A stretch of 64,000 bases of DNA, taken from positions 62,001 through 126,000 of the forward strand of contig JAEULJ010000001.1 of assembly GCA_016793865.1 (NCBI GenBank), read 5' to 3'. The position numbers were made by a program, and so were the translations under genes. Below, in pieces: positions 23,067-28,586 of this stretch (the stretch's first letter is position 1; every line of letters begins with the position of its first letter). Origin of the DNA: Altererythrobacter sp. Its GTDB lineage: Bacteria > Pseudomonadota > Alphaproteobacteria > Sphingomonadales > Sphingomonadaceae. The notes beneath the pieces were generated by a model. It was not told the DNA's origin. It searched no databases and worked only from the letters and a program-made list of their open reading frames with translations.

Positions 23067-24098
23067 TCACGCCTGCTCGGCGGCGATCCCGTGCTTGCGG
23101 ATGCAATGGCGCAGCTGGTCATAGCTCAGCCCGAGCGCCTTGGCGGTCTGGCGCTGATTCCAGCGGTTGCGGCCCAGCGAATGCTCCAGGATCGCGCGTT
23201 CATGCGCATCCACCGCAGCGCGCAGGTCCGCAACCGAATCGTAATCGGGGGCGGACGGGGTGGAGGTAGCGCCGCCGGGTGGAACCTCGGCCGGGGTAGC
23301 CTGGCCAGCCGCGCAATCCGGCTTCCACGGACTGTCGAAGGGATCGAACTGGACATGGCCGATGGGCGCTCCCCAATCGTCCCAGCGGTACACCGCGCGC
23401 TCGATCACATTGCGCAGCTCGCGCACATTGCCGGGCCAGCCGTAGTCGCCGAGCTGGCCTGCGACATGGGTCGCGAAGCCGGGCCAGCGCTCCCAGCCGA
23501 GTTCGGCCGCCATGCGCCGCCCGAAATAGTCCGACAGCACCTCCACATCGCCTTCCCGCACCCTGAGCGGCGGCAGGGTGATGACCTCGAAGCTAAGCCG
23601 GTCCAGCAGGTCGGAGCGGAAACCGCCGCGCGCGGCCTTGGCCGGCAGGTCCTCGTTGGTGGCGGCCACGATGCGCACGTTCACGCGCATGGGGCGGGAG
23701 GAGCCGATGCGGGTGACCTCGCCATATTCGACCGCGCGCAACAGCCGTTCCTGCGCACCCATCGACAGCGTGCCCAGTTCGTCGAGAAAAAGCGTCCCTT
23801 TGTCGGCTTCTTCGAACCGTCCGGCGCGGGTTCTGGTAGCCCCGGTAAATGCGCCGGCCTCGTGTCCGAAAAGTTCGGCCTCGATCAGCGTTTCGGGCAA
23901 GGCGGCGCAGTTCATGGTGACGAGCGGTTCGTCCCAGCGCGAGGACAGGCGATGCAAGCGTTCGGCGATCAACTCCTTGCCAGTGCCTCGCTCGCCGATG
24001 ATCAGCACCGGGCGCTGCATCGGCGCGGCCTTGCTGGTCCGCTCCACGGCATCGAGGAAGGCGGTCGATTGACCGACGAACTGGTTGTCCCGCTGCAT
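23067..24098 (-). CDS. pspF: Phage shock operon activator PspF (sigma-54 enhancer-binding protein)
   Basis: The product is 343 aa from ATG at 24098 (MQRDNQFVGQS). It consists of an AAA+ domain with no N-terminal sensor domain, as expected for PspF: Walker A GERGTGKEL, the sigma-54 contact loop GAFTGA, Walker B TLFLDEL and WPGNVRELRNVIERAVYRWD. The C-terminus is a Fis-type helix-turn-helix (NQRQTAKALGLSYDQLRHCI). It activates the divergent psp promoter at 24198 and is normally held inactive by PspA. Confidence 0.95.
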   Translation of the reverse strand: MQRDNQFVGQSTAFLDAVERTSKAAPMQRPVLIIGERGTGKELIAERLHRLSSRWDEPLVTMNCAALPETLIEAELFGHEAGAFTGATRTRAGRFEEADKGTLFLDELGTLSMGAQERLLRAVEYGEVTRIGSSRPMRVNVRIVAATNEDLPAKAARGGFRSDLLDRLSFEVITLPPLRVREGDVEVLSDYFGRRMAAELGWERWPGFATHVAGQLGDYGWPGNVRELRNVIERAVYRWDDWGAPIGHVQFDPFDSPWKPDCAAGQATPAEVPPGGATSTPSAPDYDSVADLRAAVDAHERAILEHSLGRNRWNQRQTAKALGLSYDQLRHCIRKHGIAAEQA

Positions 24099-24197
24099 CC
24101 CCGCGATATAGCGGATTTCACCGAATCTTGGCAAGAATTCCCTTGCCCGGAGTTGGGTGAATTTCACACTATGGCTGATTTTCGCCATTCCGGTGGT

Positions 24198-24214
24198 TTG
24201 GCACGGTGCTTGCT
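24198..24214 (+). promoter_or_regulatory. Sigma-54 promoter of the psp operon
   Basis: TTGGCACGGTGCTTGCT matches the -24/-12 consensus YTGGCACG-N4-TTGCW perfectly. It is 34 bases upstream of the 50-aa gene at 24248 and faces away from pspF, which encodes the matching enhancer-binding activator. Confidence 0.93.
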
Positions 24215-24247
24215 GCTATCTCGGCAACTGCATCCGGGAGGACCACC

Positions 24248-24400
24248 ATGTACAACCGCAGCTTCTTCACCACCCGCCTTGGCCAAGCCGCGCTCGCCTC
24301 GATCGGCGCGATGGCGGCCTTCGTGATGCTGTCCACCCAGATCACCATCACCGCCCCCGCGGCGCAGCTCGCGCTGGTGCAGACGGCGGAACTGGCGTGA
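24248..24400 (+). CDS. 50-aa membrane peptide, first gene of the psp operon
   Basis: ATG at 24248 follows GGGAGGACCACC. The peptide begins MYNRSFFTTRLGQAALASIG and has one hydrophobic segment (about residues 13-30) and no charged tail. It is the first cistron after the sigma-54 promoter. Its stop overlaps a GTG (24397) that is in frame with pspA. No family is recognised. Position suggests a role in membrane stress sensing or translational coupling. Confidence 0.7.
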   Translation: MYNRSFFTTRLGQAALASIGAMAAFVMLSTQITITAPAAQLALVQTAELA

Positions 24401-24612
24401 TCGGCAACGACCCTTTCGATCCCCTAGGGCCGGAGCCTCGCTCCCCCGACCCCCGCGGCGCGTCCTCCCGGACCGCCGCCGAGGCTTCGGCCCGCCTCCA
24501 CATGCCGTCCGAAAATCGCCGGTCGCGCCTCGACGAGGAAGTCGAACGGTTGCGCCGGTCGCCCACCCCCACCCAGTCGGGACCGAACCCTTCGTTCAAT
24601 GGAGTACCTTTG

Positions 24613-25308
24613 ATGGGCATATTCAACCGCGCCCGAGACATCTTCGCCGCCAATTTCAACGAGCTGCTCGACAAGGCGGACGATCCGCAGAAGATGATCC
24701 GCATGATCATCCTCGAGATGGAGGAAACCCTTGTCGAGGTTCGCGCCAGCGCCGCGCGCACCATCGCCGACCAGAAGGAGATGCACCGCCATTCGGTCAA
24801 GCTGGACAAGCTCCAGGCCGACTGGTCGGAAAAGGCGCAGCTCGCGCTCAGCAAGGACCGCGAGGATCTCGCCCGCGCGGCCCTGGTCGAGAAGAAGAAG
24901 GCGGCCGACATGAGCGAACAGCTCAAGGCGGAAATCGCGGTGCTCGACGATGCACTGCGGGCCTACGAGCAGGACATCCAGAAGCTGCAGAACCGCCTGC
25001 GCGAGGCGCGCACGCGCCAGACCGCGATCGCGGCCCGGCTTGAGAGCGCCGAGAACCGCGTGAAGCTGCGCAGCCTGATGACCAACGAGCGCGTGGACGA
25101 TGCCCTCAGCCGCTTCGACCAGCTCGAGCGGCGGGTCGATTACGCGGAAGGCCGCGCCGATGCGCTCCAGATCGCGGACGGCACCGGAAAGCCCACGCTG
25201 GCCGACGAGATCGCCGCACTGGAGGGTGCCGACGCGATCGACGACGAACTTGCTGAAATGAAGCGCGCCCTCGGCAAGCCCGGCGCGGCGGCTGAAAAGG
25301 GGGAATAA
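24613..25308 (+). CDS. pspA: Phage shock protein A
   Basis: The product is 231 aa from ATG at 24613, which follows GGAGTACCTTTG and gives the standard start MGIFNRARDIFAANFNELLD. PspA is an ESCRT-III-like, coiled-coil membrane-remodelling protein that binds stressed inner membrane and inhibits PspF. The whole length is helical (KKKAADMSEQLKAEIAVLDD, NRLREARTRQTAIAARLESA). The frame stays open upstream to a GTG at 24397, which would add 72 residues of proline and arginine-rich sequence. I regard the shorter form as real. Confidence 0.95.
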   Translation: MGIFNRARDIFAANFNELLDKADDPQKMIRMIILEMEETLVEVRASAARTIADQKEMHRHSVKLDKLQADWSEKAQLALSKDREDLARAALVEKKKAADMSEQLKAEIAVLDDALRAYEQDIQKLQNRLREARTRQTAIAARLESAENRVKLRSLMTNERVDDALSRFDQLERRVDYAEGRADALQIADGTGKPTLADEIAALEGADAIDDELAEMKRALGKPGAAAEKGE

Positions 25309-25311
25309 CCA

Positions 25312-25614
25312 ATGGAGCCCGAGAATTTCTTCTTCCTGGTAATGCTGCTGCTGGGGCTTCCCTGGCTGGTCCTGCACTATATCACCAAGTGGAAGACCGC
25401 CGCCACGATCACCACCGATGACGAGGTGCTGCTCGAGGAGCTCTACAATCTGGCCAAGCGGCTCGACGAGCGCATGGACACGGTCGAGCGGCTGGTCGCC
25501 AGCGACAACCCCGACTTCCGTCCGGCCCGCCTCACGCACAACCTGGAAACCGACAACCAGCAGCTTCGCGAACTGGAGAAGCTCATGGCAGAAAAGAACG
25601 GAGCAAGCCGGTGA
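25312..25614 (+). CDS. pspB: Envelope stress response membrane protein PspB
   Basis: A 100-aa protein with an N-terminal membrane helix (FFFLVMLLLGLPWLVLHYITK) and a C-terminal amphipathic helix, LAKRLDERMDTVERLVASDN, with the PspB pattern R(M/I)..(L/V)E..L. It starts 3 bases after pspA and ends on the GTGA start of pspC. PspB and PspC sense envelope stress and relieve PspA inhibition of PspF. The C-terminus is about 25 residues longer than in E. coli. Confidence 0.9.
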   Translation: MEPENFFFLVMLLLGLPWLVLHYITKWKTAATITTDDEVLLEELYNLAKRLDERMDTVERLVASDNPDFRPARLTHNLETDNQQLRELEKLMAEKNGASR

Positions 25615-25988
25615 AGACGCCTCACACAACGCTGTATCGCGACAAGGCCAATGCCAAGCTCATGGGCGTCTGCGCCGGTATCGCGGACTACACGGGCGTC
25701 AACCTGTTCTGGGTCCGCATGATGGCAATCCTGGTCTTCTTCATGACCAGCGGCGGAGTGGTCCCGTTCTACATCCTGGCCGGGATGCTGCTCGATAAGA
25801 AGCCACCCTATCTCTACTCCGACAAGCAGGAGCAGCGTTACTGGCAGGGCGTCCGCCAGAGCCCTCAGCGCACCGCGCGCGAAATCCGCAGCCGCATGAA
25901 GGACGTGGATCGCCGCCTGGCCGAGGTCGAGAACTTCTACGTCAGCAGCAATCCGCGGCTCAACGCCGAGATCGAACGGCTGCGCTGA
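25611..25988 (+). CDS. pspC: Envelope stress response membrane protein PspC
   Basis: A 125-aa protein with a GTG start overlapping the pspB stop. It has the PspC domain, LYRDKANAKLMGVCAGIADY followed by NLFWVRMMAILVFF and a second hydrophobic stretch ending FYILAGMLLDKK. A cytoplasmic or periplasmic helix (SRMKDVDRRLAEVENFYVSS) ends the protein. Works with PspB in psp signalling and membrane protection. Confidence 0.95.
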   Translation: MKTPHTTLYRDKANAKLMGVCAGIADYTGVNLFWVRMMAILVFFMTSGGVVPFYILAGMLLDKKPPYLYSDKQEQRYWQGVRQSPQRTAREIRSRMKDVDRRLAEVENFYVSSNPRLNAEIERLR

Positions 25989-26017
25989 ACACATCCAACA
26001 GGGGAGTACACACTATC

Positions 26018-26329
26018 ATGGAAGGCACCATCGCGCTGCTTATTCCGATCCTGGCGCTGACGATACCGATTGTCGCGATCTGGACCAAGCACCAGCAGAA
26101 GCTGGCGGAGATGAACGTCAAGTCGACGGCTGAAAATACCGCTGAGCGGGCCGCGCAATACGCCACCCAGATCACCCAGCTCGAGGATCGGGTGCGCGTG
26201 CTGGAACGTATCGTCACCGACGGCGGCTACAACGTCGCGACCCAGATCGAGGCGCTGCGCGACCAACGCCGGGTCGAAGACCAGAGTGCCGGCGTGCCGC
26301 TCGACGCGATTCGCAAGGAGCGCGCATGA
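26018..26329 (+). CDS. PspB-like small membrane protein, paralogue 1
   Basis: A 103-aa protein with an N-terminal membrane helix (LLIPILALTIPIVAIW) and a C-terminal coiled coil containing LEDRVRVLERIVTDGGYNV, then QIEALRDQ. The RV..LERIV pattern resembles the C-terminal helix of PspB, but the proteins are longer and more divergent than PspB itself. ATG at 26018 has a GGGGAG element. It starts 29 bases after pspC and its stop overlaps the next start (ATGA), so it belongs to the psp transcript. Function unknown. I infer a membrane-stress role. Confidence 0.8.
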   Translation: MEGTIALLIPILALTIPIVAIWTKHQQKLAEMNVKSTAENTAERAAQYATQITQLEDRVRVLERIVTDGGYNVATQIEALRDQRRVEDQSAGVPLDAIRKERA

Positions 26330-26676
26330 TGGATTGGGGCGGGCCATTTTTCGTGATCGCGATCATCGCGATCAGCACGGGCGGCTGGCTCGTGAACAAC
26401 TGGATCCGTGCGCGTCACGGCTATTCCCTGGAGAATGAGTGGGGCGGCACGACCGAGCCCACCGAAGCCAAGGCGAATTCGGAACTCAAGCGCGAGAACG
26501 TTGCCCTGAGAAGCGAACTCAAGACCGTACACGATCGTGTGGCAGTGCTGGAGCGGATCGTGACCGACAAGGGTTACGGCTTGCGCGAGGAGATCGAGGC
26601 GCTGCGCGATGCCCGCGGTGGCACGGATCAGGGCGCGGGCGCGCCCCTCGACATCGCCAGGCAGGAGCGCGTCTGA
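26326..26676 (+). CDS. PspB-like small membrane protein, paralogue 2
   Basis: A 116-aa protein with a membrane helix (FFVIAIIAISTGGWLV) and a soluble coiled coil with VHDRVAVLERIVTDKGYGL and EEIEALRDA. It shares with paralogue 3 a GYSLENEWG or GYPLEGMWG motif right after the membrane segment, which paralogues 1, 4 and 5 lack. Four-base overlap with the gene before it. The stop and the next ATG share one base. Confidence 0.8.
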   Translation: MMDWGGPFFVIAIIAISTGGWLVNNWIRARHGYSLENEWGGTTEPTEAKANSELKRENVALRSELKTVHDRVAVLERIVTDKGYGLREEIEALRDARGGTDQGAGAPLDIARQERV

Positions 26677-27014
26677 TGGATGGGTCCGACTTCCTCCAAT
26701 ATCTGCCCTTCCTCATCGGCGGCGGCCTGTTGGTCAGCTTCGCGGGTGTGATCGGCTGGGTCCAGACCACCAAGCTGAAGATCAACGCCGGCTATCCGCT
26801 GGAGGGGATGTGGGGCCAATCGCTCCACCCCAAGCGCGACGCGCAGACCGATCAGCGGGTCATGTTGCTGACGCAGGAGAATGCCGCGCTCCAGGCCGAG
26901 ATCGGCTCGGTCAAGGACCGGCTCGCCAATGTCGAGCGCATCGTCACCGACAGCGGCTTCCATCTCACGCATGAAATCGACCGGCTGCGGATCGGGAAGG
27001 ACAAGGACCAGTGA
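26676..27014 (+). CDS. PspB-like small membrane protein, paralogue 3
   Basis: A 112-aa protein with a membrane helix (LPFLIGGGLLVSFAGVIGW), the GYPLEGMWG motif, and a coiled coil with VKDRLANVERIVTDSGFHL and HEIDRLR. ATG at 26676 begins on the last base of the previous stop, implying termination-reinitiation. An in-frame upstream extension into paralogue 2 is not used, since it loses the membrane helix start. Confidence 0.8.
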   Translation: MDGSDFLQYLPFLIGGGLLVSFAGVIGWVQTTKLKINAGYPLEGMWGQSLHPKRDAQTDQRVMLLTQENAALQAEIGSVKDRLANVERIVTDSGFHLTHEIDRLRIGKDKDQ

Positions 27015-27298
27015 ACTTTCCCGAAGCAATCGCCCTGTGCGCTGTCGTCATCGGGCTGATCGCGGGAGCGGGCATCCTGCTGGAGGCATACAACCGCCGC
27101 CTCAAGAACCGCGAGCGCGAGCTCGAGCTAAGGGTCCGCATGGCCGAGACCCAGGGCCGCGACCGCATTGCCGGCCTGCCGCAGGTCGAGGAAAGGCTGC
27201 GTGTGCTCGAACGCATTGCAACTGACCGGCGCAGCGATCTTGCCAGCGAAATCGAGGAGCTGCGCGAGATCGCGCCGCTGCGGGAGAATGTTCGATGA
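27011..27298 (+). CDS. PspB-like small membrane protein, paralogue 4
   Basis: A 95-aa protein starting at GTG 27011 within the previous stop (GTGA). Membrane helix LCAVVIGLIAGAGILLEAY is followed by a strongly charged helix (RLKNRERELELRVRMAE) and the signature VEERLRVLERIATDRRSDL with SEIEELRE. The spacing of membrane helix to signature is similar to that in paralogues 1 and 5. Confidence 0.8.
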   Translation: MNFPEAIALCAVVIGLIAGAGILLEAYNRRLKNRERELELRVRMAETQGRDRIAGLPQVEERLRVLERIATDRRSDLASEIEELREIAPLRENVR

Positions 27299-27579
27299 GC
27301 GGTTGGATGGTCGTGGCGATCGTGGCGATCGTGATGTCGGCACTGGTCAAGATCGTCAGCATCCGCCGCGACGAGCGCCACGGCGTGGTCCGGGACGAGG
27401 ATGACAATCCGGTCCGCCTGCCTCGCGACGATCCGGCGGCGCGCCGCGAGATCGAGGAACTGCGCGAGCGCATCAAGGTGCTGGAGCGCATCGCCACCGA
27501 TGGCAACACGCCGTCGGCCAATGAAACCCGCCGCATCTCGCAGGAGATCGAGGCGTTGCGGGACCGCCAGGACGGCTGA
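27295..27579 (+). CDS. PspB-like small membrane protein, paralogue 5
   Basis: A 94-aa protein with ATG at 27295 overlapping the previous stop. Membrane helix MVVAIVAIVMSALVKIV, then a charged linker and the signature LRERIKVLERIATDGN with a 7-residue insertion before QEIEALRDR. It ends 21 bases before the next start, where a strong AGGAGGAGG ribosome site restarts translation. Confidence 0.8.
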   Translation: MSGWMVVAIVAIVMSALVKIVSIRRDERHGVVRDEDDNPVRLPRDDPAARREIEELRERIKVLERIATDGNTPSANETRRISQEIEALRDRQDG

Positions 27580-27600
27580 GGGACAGGAGGAGGAACGAAC

Positions 27601-27846
27601 GTGATCATGCCCGAACCTACGCTTGTGATCGCCGGTGCCGCGCTCGTCGGGCTGGTGGTGGTGGTGGCCGCGCTGCTCAAGGGCTGGCAAGGCTGGCTGG
27701 CGCTCAAGCAGCGCGAGATGGACGTGCAGGCCACGCCGGCCAAGGGCGCGGGCGGTTCCCCGCTCATCGTCGCCCGGATCGAGCTCAGCGACCTGAAAGA
27801 GCGCATTCGCAAGCTGGAAGCGATCGCAAGCGGGGTGGACCCGTGA
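27601..27846 (+). CDS. PspB-like small membrane protein, paralogue 6 (degenerate signature)
   Basis: An 81-aa protein. GTG at 27601 has ideal spacing from AGGAGGAGG, while ATG at 27607 is the alternative. Membrane helix LVIAGAALVGLVVVVAALLK, then a C-terminal LKERIRKLEAIASG that keeps the helix pattern but lacks the TD ending and the following EIEALRD helix. Shorter than the others, so it could be a diverged copy. Confidence 0.7.
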   Translation: MIMPEPTLVIAGAALVGLVVVVAALLKGWQGWLALKQREMDVQATPAKGAGGSPLIVARIELSDLKERIRKLEAIASGVDP

Positions 27847-28031
27847 GCGGCGCCAGAAGCGTGGTCCGGGGCGATGCCGCGCGGGTCGGGATCGGCCTGG
27901 GCAGCGCGATCGCGGTTGCCATCAGCTGGTCGCTGCACAAGTCGATCCTGTGGGCGGCCATTCATGGCTTCCTCGGCTGGTTCTACGTCATCTATTACGC
28001 GATCACCCGCCCTGGCGGGATTTCGGGCTGA
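27843..28031 (+). CDS. Small two-helix membrane protein ending the psp cluster
   Basis: A 62-aa protein with a GTG start inside the previous stop (GTGA). It has two hydrophobic segments, IGLGSAIAVAISWSL and ILWAAIHGFLGWFYVIYYAI. No coiled coil or LERI signature. It is probably the last gene of the psp transcript, and no clear terminator is seen before sufE, 142 bases on. Function unknown. Confidence 0.65.
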   Translation: MSGARSVVRGDAARVGIGLGSAIAVAISWSLHKSILWAAIHGFLGWFYVIYYAITRPGGISG

Positions 28032-28172
28032 GCGCCGGCTTCAACCCCGCCACCGCCCGTTCCCATTTGACACAGGGCTGCCATAGCCCGCTTGTCGCGC
28101 CGGCCGTCAGCGCATAGCGGCGGACGATGGGCCGGAGCGGGGGAGGCCCCCTGCGCCGAACGGAGGGCAGCG

Positions 28173-28586
28173 GTGAGGAGCCTGGACGACATCGCCGAGG
28201 AATATGCGTTCCTCGATCCCGACGACCGCTATCGCCTGCTGATCGAGCTCGGCCGGTCGCTGGAGCCGATGCCGCCCGCGCTCAGGACCGATGCGACGCT
28301 CGTGCGTGGCTGCTCGGCGCAGGTATGGGTTTATCCCACGGGCGATGAGGGTCGGCTCCATTTCCTGGCGGACAGCAATGCCGCCATCACCAAGGGCATC
28401 GTGGCGCTGGTCGTTGCCGCCGTGCAGGACAGGCCCGCCGCCGATGTCGCCGGCATGGACATCGCCGCCGCGCTCGCACCCTTCGATCTCGCCAATCAGC
28501 TTTCTTCCAATCGCACGCAGGGCCTTCCCAACATGATCGCACTGGTCAGGGACCATGCCGCGCGCATCGCGGCGGTGACGCGATGA
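28173..28586 (+). CDS. sufE: SufE family cysteine desulfuration protein
   Basis: A 137-aa protein from GTG at 28173, with CGGAGGG just upstream. SufE accepts persulfide sulfur from SufS for Fe-S cluster assembly. The active cysteine is in LVRGCSAQVWVY, and the C-terminal LSSNRTQGLPNMIALVRD is typical. The start of an upstream in-frame ATG (28092) would add unconserved residues. Overlaps the next gene by four bases. Confidence 0.92.
   Translation: MRSLDDIAEEYAFLDPDDRYRLLIELGRSLEPMPPALRTDATLVRGCSAQVWVYPTGDEGRLHFLADSNAAITKGIVALVVAAVQDRPAADVAGMDIAAALAPFDLANQLSSNRTQGLPNMIALVRDHAARIAAVTR

What the first reader, a model, noticed from the sequence alone, without database searches (positions are those of the whole stretch)
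26018..28031. Tandem array of PspB-like membrane/coiled-coil paralogues appended to the psp operon
Five consecutive genes (26018, 26326, 26676, 27011, 27295) each encode one N-terminal membrane helix and a C-terminal helix with (L/V)ERI(V/A)TD, mostly followed by EIEALRD-type text. A sixth (27601) has a degenerate copy, and a seventh (27843) is a two-helix membrane protein. Seen directly: overlaps of 1-4 bases between most of them. PspB itself ends with RMDTVERLVASDN, so I infer local duplication and divergence of a PspB-like module. Graded binding to PspA or PspC, or a hetero-oligomeric sensor, is a testable hypothesis. In E. coli the psp locus has only a single PspB.
Basis: partly seen in the sequence, partly recalled or inferred. 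Interest (0 to 1): 0.75.

Follow-up and report, generated by a model that had tools for sequence, protein, structure and literature searches.

The report
Expanded membrane-tail array in psp operon
In sphingomonad bacteria the cell-envelope stress operon (psp) carries one to seven extra small membrane proteins whose inner tails resemble the part of the sensor PspC thought to grip the effector PspA, so the sensor may have become a multi-part device.

Summary
The array is real. Five overlapping genes (26018-27579) follow pspA/pspB/pspC. Each encodes one N-terminal membrane helix and a tail with R-x4-E-R-I-V/A-T-D and, further on, I-x2-LR. A degenerate sixth (27601) and an unrelated seventh (27843) follow. 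All 75 PspC-bearing sphingomonad loci examined (51 genera) have 1-7 copies. Twelve of 15 family genomes without PspC have neither PspA nor array.

'Local duplication of PspB' is only partly right. PspB models match gene 1 below threshold. The best profile match is the PspC tail for three of five classes, PspB for one, neither for one. A tree sets array and stand-alone homologues apart from PspB (support 72). Similarity classes recur across genera, and no concerted evolution was seen.

Best reading: PspC-like PspA-docking tails on PspB-like single-helix anchors. Two arrangements fit: one locus with a tail-less PspC, no pspB found, and two array genes; and two loci with an extra tail-less PspC core followed by one array gene. 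'PspB duplicates' in psp operons are mentioned in one line of a 2024 paper. New variant of a known system; mechanism untested.

The parts
24199..24213 (+). sigma-54 (-24/-12) element TGGCAC-N5-TTGC (consensus recalled), likely start of the psp operon
   Evidence: the only exact match in the window, though chance predicts about 4-5 matches at one mismatch; site scoring >=14 of 15.5 on my own scale within 600 nt upstream of pspA in 76 of 81 loci
23067..24188 (-). pspF-like sigma-54 activator, divergent
   Evidence: ORF of 373 aa; recognised by eye and position, not by HMM
24248..24400 (+). conserved 50-aa hydrophobic leader protein, first ORF after the promoter element
   Evidence: one hit per locus in 50 of 75 family loci, none of 6 outgroup loci
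24613..25308 (+). pspA
   Evidence: TIGR02977 1.9e-80
25312..25614 (+). pspB
   Evidence: TIGR02976 1.4e-24
25611..25988 (+). pspC, with the C-terminal tail (residues about 90-125) that resembles the array tails
   Evidence: TIGR02978 5.1e-38; tail match
26018..26329 (+). array gene 1, class c2
26326..26676 (+). array gene 2, class c0 (subtype a)
26676..27014 (+). array gene 3, class c0 (subtype b)
27011..27298 (+). array gene 4, class c4
27295..27579 (+). array gene 5, class c1 (the class of the one array gene in 5 of 5 single-copy family loci)
27601..27846 (+). terminal degenerate member, class c3 (tail stops at LEAIASGVD)
   Evidence: last member in 69 of 75 family loci; median dN/dS 0.26 among 11 loci
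27843..28031 (+). 62-aa hydrophobic protein with no recognisable tail; not counted as a family member
   Evidence: found in 18 of 75 family loci; no Pfam or NCBIfam match

Best explanation
The array encodes single-pass membrane proteins (N-terminus out, C-terminus in) that each present a PspC-type cytoplasmic tail on a PspB-like anchor. They act inside the Psp complex: made together with PspA/B/C when PspF fires the sigma-54 promoter, they associate with PspB/PspC in the membrane and supply extra docking tails for PspA. That would turn a single PspA switch into a multi-subunit platform whose members differ in their membrane and juxtamembrane parts. Shown here: operon position and overlaps, conservation, topology by charge rule, co-absence with psp, remote relation to PspC tail and PspB. 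Inferred: one transcript, PspA binding, hetero-oligomers, different inputs.
For: Genes and overlaps. Array in 75 of 75 PspC-bearing family loci fetched. 12 of 15 PspC-negative family genomes lack PspA and array together. Profile-profile match to PspC 95.0/85.9/82.7% for c0/c1/c4 against 4.4/6.0/1.1% for reversed PspC profiles; against PspA, a coiled-coil control from the same operon, 2.4-15.7% for these and c2. MAFFT aligns the end of E. coli PspC with the tails. Own-genome search: PspC tail is the best non-array match. In 5 of 6 outgroup loci the only tail-model hit under 0.05 is the ORF in pspB position. In 23 genomes, of the 19 matches weaker than 1e-6, 14 lie within 150 nt downstream of pspA, 2 on pspC, 3 elsewhere. 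Tail-less PspC with array genes in L177; extra tail-less PspC core followed by an array gene in L187 and L188. More K/R after than before the membrane segment in 353 of 357 proteins. Median dN/dS 0.25-0.37 for six genes. Sigma-54 element. [quoted passage not shown] in E. coli the PspC leucine zipper is required for PspA interaction (PMC3068692, abstract and passages).
Against: The sequence relation is weak and coiled-coil-like: the PDB search with the array profile returns generic coiled coils from E 0.0074 (177,635 sequences), and PspC's tail in one genome is only 0.0036. c2 matches PspC at 37% only, c1 matches PspB at 14.7% only, c3 matches neither; PspB and PspC themselves did not match each other in the trimmed comparison (0.9%). 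Array tails are not more like their own genome's PspC tail than others' (200 tails, 51 of 81 PspC usable). In the E. coli-containing alignment only M1, one R and one E are invariant. The model of gene 1 is one long helix, pTM 0.33, and says nothing about partners. In other families the fetched homologues are mostly unlinked to psp, and 9 tested had no outstanding sigma-54 site. L122-type exceptions exist to the co-absence: G122 (66% complete) has an array and no PspA found. E. coli work once placed the PspC C-terminus in the periplasm (passages of PMC3068692), which disagrees with the Yersinia picture. Nothing experimental is available for this lineage.
Confidence: 0.6

Rival explanations
1. 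The array proteins are mainly effectors, not PspA-docking regulators: small single-pass proteins that oligomerise through their coiled coils to strengthen damaged membrane or to neutralise mislocalised pores, as PspBC does with secretins, without binding PspA.
For: PspBC are sufficient to counteract mislocalised secretin toxicity in Yersinia (PMC5596341, abstract passage). The proteins are many and vary in the membrane part; nine stand-alone homologues tested have no outstanding sigma-54 site.
Against: The most conserved part is the tail that resembles PspC, not the membrane helix. The one locus with a tail-less PspC keeps tails on its array proteins.
Confidence: 0.2
2. Local duplication of this operon's PspB: the array is a recent tandem expansion of pspB whose copies mainly add dosage.
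For: Tandem arrangement; sub-threshold PspB match of gene 1; c2 matches PspB better than PspC; PspB-like topology; a 2024 survey mentions PspB duplicates in operons (PMC11237479 section 17, read).
Against: Classes recur across genera; no concerted evolution; PspB sequences, E. coli's among them, stay outside the array plus stand-alone group (support 72); three of five classes match the PspC tail better than PspB.
Confidence: 0.1
3. The similarity to PspB/PspC is convergent coiled-coil composition, and the array is an unrelated membrane-protein family that shares the operon.
For: Generic coiled coils reach E 0.0074 in the PDB search; c3 matches neither protein, and PspB against PspC gave 0.9%; stand-alone homologues lie outside psp.
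Against: Reversed and column-shuffled controls score lower; searches with the array profile land on the PspC tail or the pspB position rather than on other coiled coils; tail spacing agrees with E. coli PspC.
Confidence: 0.1

Closest known systems
PspC (PF04024 / TIGR02978), C-terminal tail
   Same: Tail R-x4-E-...-L-x2-E/R-I/F-x2-L with equal spacing in E. coli PspC, the window's PspC and window genes 1-4 (gene 5 has an insertion); same operon.
   Different: Array proteins have no match to the PspC membrane domain and carry a single-helix anchor.
PspB (PF06667 / TIGR02976)
   Same: Short protein, one N-terminal membrane helix, coiled-coil tail with R-x4-E; same operon.
   Different: Below both curated cut-offs; lacks, by eye, the PW-x2-LHY-x-TKWK text of the window's PspB; has the I-x2-LR end that PspB lacks; separate group in the tree.
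'PspB duplicates' and PspC-PspB fusions in psp operons (Ravi et al. 2024, PMC11237479)
   Same: Extra PspB-like proteins in a psp operon, noted in one line with the example AOL22920.1 (section 17).
   Different: The parts I saw (sections 17 and 26 and passages) give no array size, classes, PspC-tail relation, lineage distribution or stand-alone homologues. Supplements could not be read and I could not check what AOL22920.1 is.
PspD and PspG, accessory Psp membrane proteins of E. coli
   Same: Small proteins of the PspF regulon (pspG: passage of PMC9239133).
   Different: Not compared by profile. E. coli PspD as translated shows no such tail by eye; PspG was not looked at.

Membership tests
PspB (PF06667 / TIGR02976) | score above curated cut-off | tested here: not met
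   gene 1: 16.1 vs 25.6 and 21.1 vs 51.7 bits; the other array genes lower or not listed
PspB (PF06667 / TIGR02976) | one N-terminal membrane helix, cytoplasmic C-terminus | tested here: met
   hydropathy and K/R distribution; a prediction, not an experiment
PspB (PF06667 / TIGR02976) | branches with known PspB | tested here: not met
   86 array and stand-alone sequences on one side, 10 PspB (E. coli included) on the other, support 72, 85 columns
PspB (PF06667 / TIGR02976) | remote profile similarity | tested here: inconclusive
   hhalign probability c0 85.0, c2 69.9, c4 60.6, c1 14.7, c3 0.2%
PspB (PF06667 / TIGR02976) | binds PspC and regulates the PspA-PspF switch | not testable with these tools
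   needs experiment
PspC (PF04024 / TIGR02978) | PspC membrane domain | tested here: not met
   no PF04024 match in any of the window's array proteins
PspC (PF04024 / TIGR02978) | C-terminal tail | tested here: met
   met for c0 95.0, c1 85.9, c4 82.7% against reversed 4.4, 6.0, 1.1; weak for c2 (37.2%), not met for c3 (0.1%)
psp operon / PspF regulon | sigma-54 promoter and contiguous transcription unit | tested here: inconclusive
   promoter element present and no + strand terminator-like site to 28300; transcript and PspF binding not measured

The most novel reading that the evidence does not exclude
In sphingomonads the PspC sensor has been taken apart: the PspA-gripping tail is supplied in trans by a graded set of up to seven single-helix anchors with different membrane and juxtamembrane parts, so that Psp induction and PspA recruitment depend on which hetero-oligomer forms. 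In a genome with a tail-less PspC these tails replace the PspC tail.
Probability: 0.35. Interest if true: 0.75.

Novelty: new variant of a known kind. Interest (0 to 1): 0.5.

Why it matters
How PspB and PspC sense membrane damage and pass it to PspA is still unsettled. A lineage that multiplies the putative PspA-docking tail, and in one genome appears to have moved it off PspC, offers a natural way to test which part senses and which part signals. In this window five of the seven membrane proteins that carry PspB- or PspC-like tails (pspB, pspC, array genes 1-5) fall below the standard family cut-offs, so surveys based on those models would miss them.

Tried and rejected
Recent tandem duplication with gene conversion: within-genome tail identity exceeds between-genome identity by 0.004 only, 37 of 70 genomes positive; in the label-shuffle test 486 of 500 shuffles reached the observed value, so the deviation is if anything the other way. 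Co-evolution of array tails with the own PspC tail: not seen (mean difference 0.0014, 200 tails, 51 of 81 PspC usable by my pattern).

PspF control of stand-alone homologues: no sigma-54 site stood out upstream of 9 tested.

Solved structures: for the array only generic coiled coils; PspC none useful; PspB one hit on 25 residues of a long repetitive protein, VopV, not followed. AlphaFold of gene 1: helix 2-90 and a short helix, mean pLDDT 76.2, pTM 0.33; PspC: tail helices 85-113 and 115-124, mean pLDDT 79.1, pTM 0.54. I ran no fold search, since a single helix would match anything.

The first profile-profile run was spoiled by one PspB row (L085): a tblastn hit spanned a stop and my script read on into pspC. 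That row was dropped (80 of 81 kept) and the comparisons were redone on trimmed alignments. The first leader-ORF search used a wrong frame and was redone; notebook entry 2 still gives the leader coordinates as 24249-24401, the right ones are 24248-24400. A draft of this report said 'conserved class order' without a count; one search shows more than one order.

Literature searches: PspB with PspA, PspC, alphaproteobacteria (2 papers); PspC, PspB, PspA, cytoplasmic domain, Yersinia; phage shock protein, Sphingomonas, PspB; PspB, paralog, phage shock, operon, duplicat; Erythrobacter, phage shock protein; PspC, Caulobacter, phage shock. Apart from the one line in PMC11237479, no listing or passage that I saw describes the array. 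Only these open-licence papers were searched, and supplements could not be read.

Full report
Observation. The window holds a psp locus: a divergent pspF-like ORF (by eye), a sigma-54 element at 24199, pspA, pspB, pspC, then seven small ORFs. The first five share one architecture and tail. Against the whole own genome in six frames the family profile A1 (25 rows, these five included) finds these five (E 1.4e-26 to 1.2e-18), then the PspC tail (0.0036), then gene 27601 (0.016), then 0.18. Consensus scans found no + strand terminator-like site and no sigma-70-like promoter from 24150 to 28300.

Distribution. Of 199 family genomes sampled, 184 have PspC at E <= 1e-12. I fetched 80 PspC-centred regions: 65 family genomes in 51 genera (recount; the own genus is one of them), nine more congeners, and six genomes of other families. 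With the window that makes 75 family loci, all chosen for having PspC. All 75 have at least one array gene at E < 1e-5: 1 copy in 5 loci, 2 in 4, 3 in 22, 4 in 20, 5 in 16, 6 in 7, 7 in 1; of the six outgroup loci five have none there and one has one. The tail model was built from the window and nine congeners, so those ten match by construction. Between neighbours, 153 of 213 junctions overlap by 1 or 4 nt; starts were chosen by a rule that favours closeness to the previous gene, so that count leans upward. No hit fell on the minus strand. In a separate sample of 196 genomes of the order, 171 match the profile at E <= 1e-4: by my count of the listing, 113 of the own family with 1-7 matches each and 58 of other families; 25 have none, 20 of them listed and all from other families.

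Co-absence. The 15 family genomes without PspC at the threshold were searched for the array (E <= 0.001) and for PspA (E <= 1e-4). Twelve, from seven genera, have neither; ten of these are at least 90% complete. The three others: G080 has PspA and two array genes; G122 (66% complete) has an array but no PspA found; G137 (about 660 contigs) has PspA 543 bases from a contig start and no array found.

Split arrangements. The G080 locus (L177) has pspA, an 88-aa PspC that matches the first 67 of 121 positions of the PspC model, no pspB among ORFs of 55 aa or more in the 6.5 kb read, then two array genes. Two genomes of family f8 (L187, L188) have pspA, pspB, pspC with tail, a second PspC core of about 80 aa without tail, then one array gene; coordinates suggest the same in G037. 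These are few cases and I take them as suggestive.

Relations. Pfam and NCBIfam give only sub-threshold matches for array proteins and for the stand-alone ones tested. Trimmed profile-profile comparison: against PspC c0 95.0, c1 85.9, c4 82.7, c2 37.2, c3 0.1% (reversed 4.4, 6.0, 1.1, 1.4, 0.5); against PspB c0 85.0, c2 69.9, c4 60.6, c1 14.7, c3 0.2%; against PspA as coiled-coil control 5.5, 2.4, 15.7, 12.6, 0.4% in the order c0, c1, c4, c2, c3; PspB against PspC 0.9%. In the earlier untrimmed run c3 matched c1 and c4 at 92-94%. MAFFT places the end of E. coli PspC on the array tails. Against all this, generic coiled coils in the PDB reach E 0.0074. What tips the balance is place. In 5 of 6 outgroup loci the only tail-model hit under 0.05 is the ORF in pspB position. 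In 23 genomes searched with A1 (45 matches), of the 19 matches weaker than 1e-6, 14 lie within 150 nt downstream of pspA, 2 on pspC, and 3 elsewhere (pspA places; pspC).

Origin. Matches in other families include true array-type homologues and also pspB or pspC themselves. Nine loci of array-type proteins outside psp were read (L178-L186; 64-90 aa); in the eight whose neighbours I listed no neighbour is shared by all, though by eye two have a flagellin-like and two an aspartyl-protease-like ORF nearby. In the class sample 10 of 289 genomes match, four of them own-family. In a tree of 96 sequences (85 columns) array and stand-alone proteins lie apart from ten PspB, support 72; none of the five classes is a strict clade, c2 and c4 group together with one c1 (23 tips, support 84), and the stand-alone proteins fall among the array classes. 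The classes come from a similarity graph, not from the tree. Of 75 loci, 50 have an order that is part of c2-c0-c0-c4-c1-c3 (the window's order, exact in 11), 19 one that is part of c0-c0-c2-c1-c3, 58 one or the other, and 17 neither; c3 is last in 69, and c1 is last or next to last in 71 of 80 cases. Class c1 is the one array gene in 5 of 5 single-copy loci and the best-scoring model for 7 of 11 stand-alone proteins. I infer that a c1-like gene joined the psp operon and expanded there before the genera split; the reverse, stand-alone copies leaving an old array, is not excluded. Concerted evolution was tested and not seen. Six genes tested among up to 11 congeners are under purifying selection, median dN/dS 0.25-0.37 at high synonymous divergence.

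Mechanism. Charge distribution puts the tail in the cytoplasm in 353 of 357 proteins. [quoted passage not shown] In E. coli the PspC leucine zipper is needed for PspA binding, though that work discusses a periplasmic C-terminus and more than one topology (PMC3068692, passages). Hence the proposal that array proteins are extra PspA-docking subunits of a PspBC-based platform. Binding and function are inferred.

Known or new. Ravi et al. 2024 (PMC11237479; sections 17 and 26 read, other passages seen) state in one line that PspB duplicates appear in psp operons. In the passages seen of a 2022 survey (PMC9239133) no such array is mentioned. A Qipengyuania genome paper (PMC9241875, two passages) says that all strains have genes for phage shock protein. 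A scan of genome contigs with a c0-subtype alignment found 401 stretches encoding a relative and kept the best 80; the named ones are Erythrobacter, Qipengyuania, Porphyrobacter, Altererythrobacter and allied sphingomonads.

Change on checking: best-explanation confidence was lowered from 0.62 to 0.60 and the convergence rival raised from 0.08 to 0.10, because PspB and PspC did not match each other in the trimmed comparison and the tree does not resolve the classes as clades.

Noticed in passing
window 24248-24400: A 50-aa hydrophobic protein (starts MYNRSFF, ends ELA) begins about 34 nt after the sigma-54 element and is probably the first gene of the operon; found once per locus in 50 of 75 family loci and in none of 6 outgroup loci. 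None of the papers seen mentions it, but I made no search for it.
   Followed up: partly
L187:2724-2966, L188:3040-3276, L177:3122-3388: PspC cores without a C-terminal tail, each followed by array-type genes.
   Followed up: partly
L178-L186: Stand-alone 64-90 aa homologues of the array proteins in other Sphingomonadales families and in one genome of another order of the class (L182), unlinked to psp, function unknown.
   Followed up: partly
L179:669-1499 and L183:3626-4459; L180:1336-2289 and L183:4610-5626: Near stand-alone homologues, two loci have a flagellin-like ORF and two an aspartyl-protease-like ORF, recognised by eye only.
   Followed up: no
window 27843-28031: 62-aa hydrophobic protein overlapping the last array gene by 4 nt, found in 18 of 75 family loci.
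   Followed up: partly
window 28173-28586: A SufE-like ORF (named by eye, not by HMM) follows the array; a homologue is found in 73 of 75 family loci, mostly within a few hundred bases of the last array gene.
   Followed up: partly
family genomes without PspC: Twelve genomes in seven genera of the family seem to have lost pspA, pspC and the array together.
   Followed up: partly
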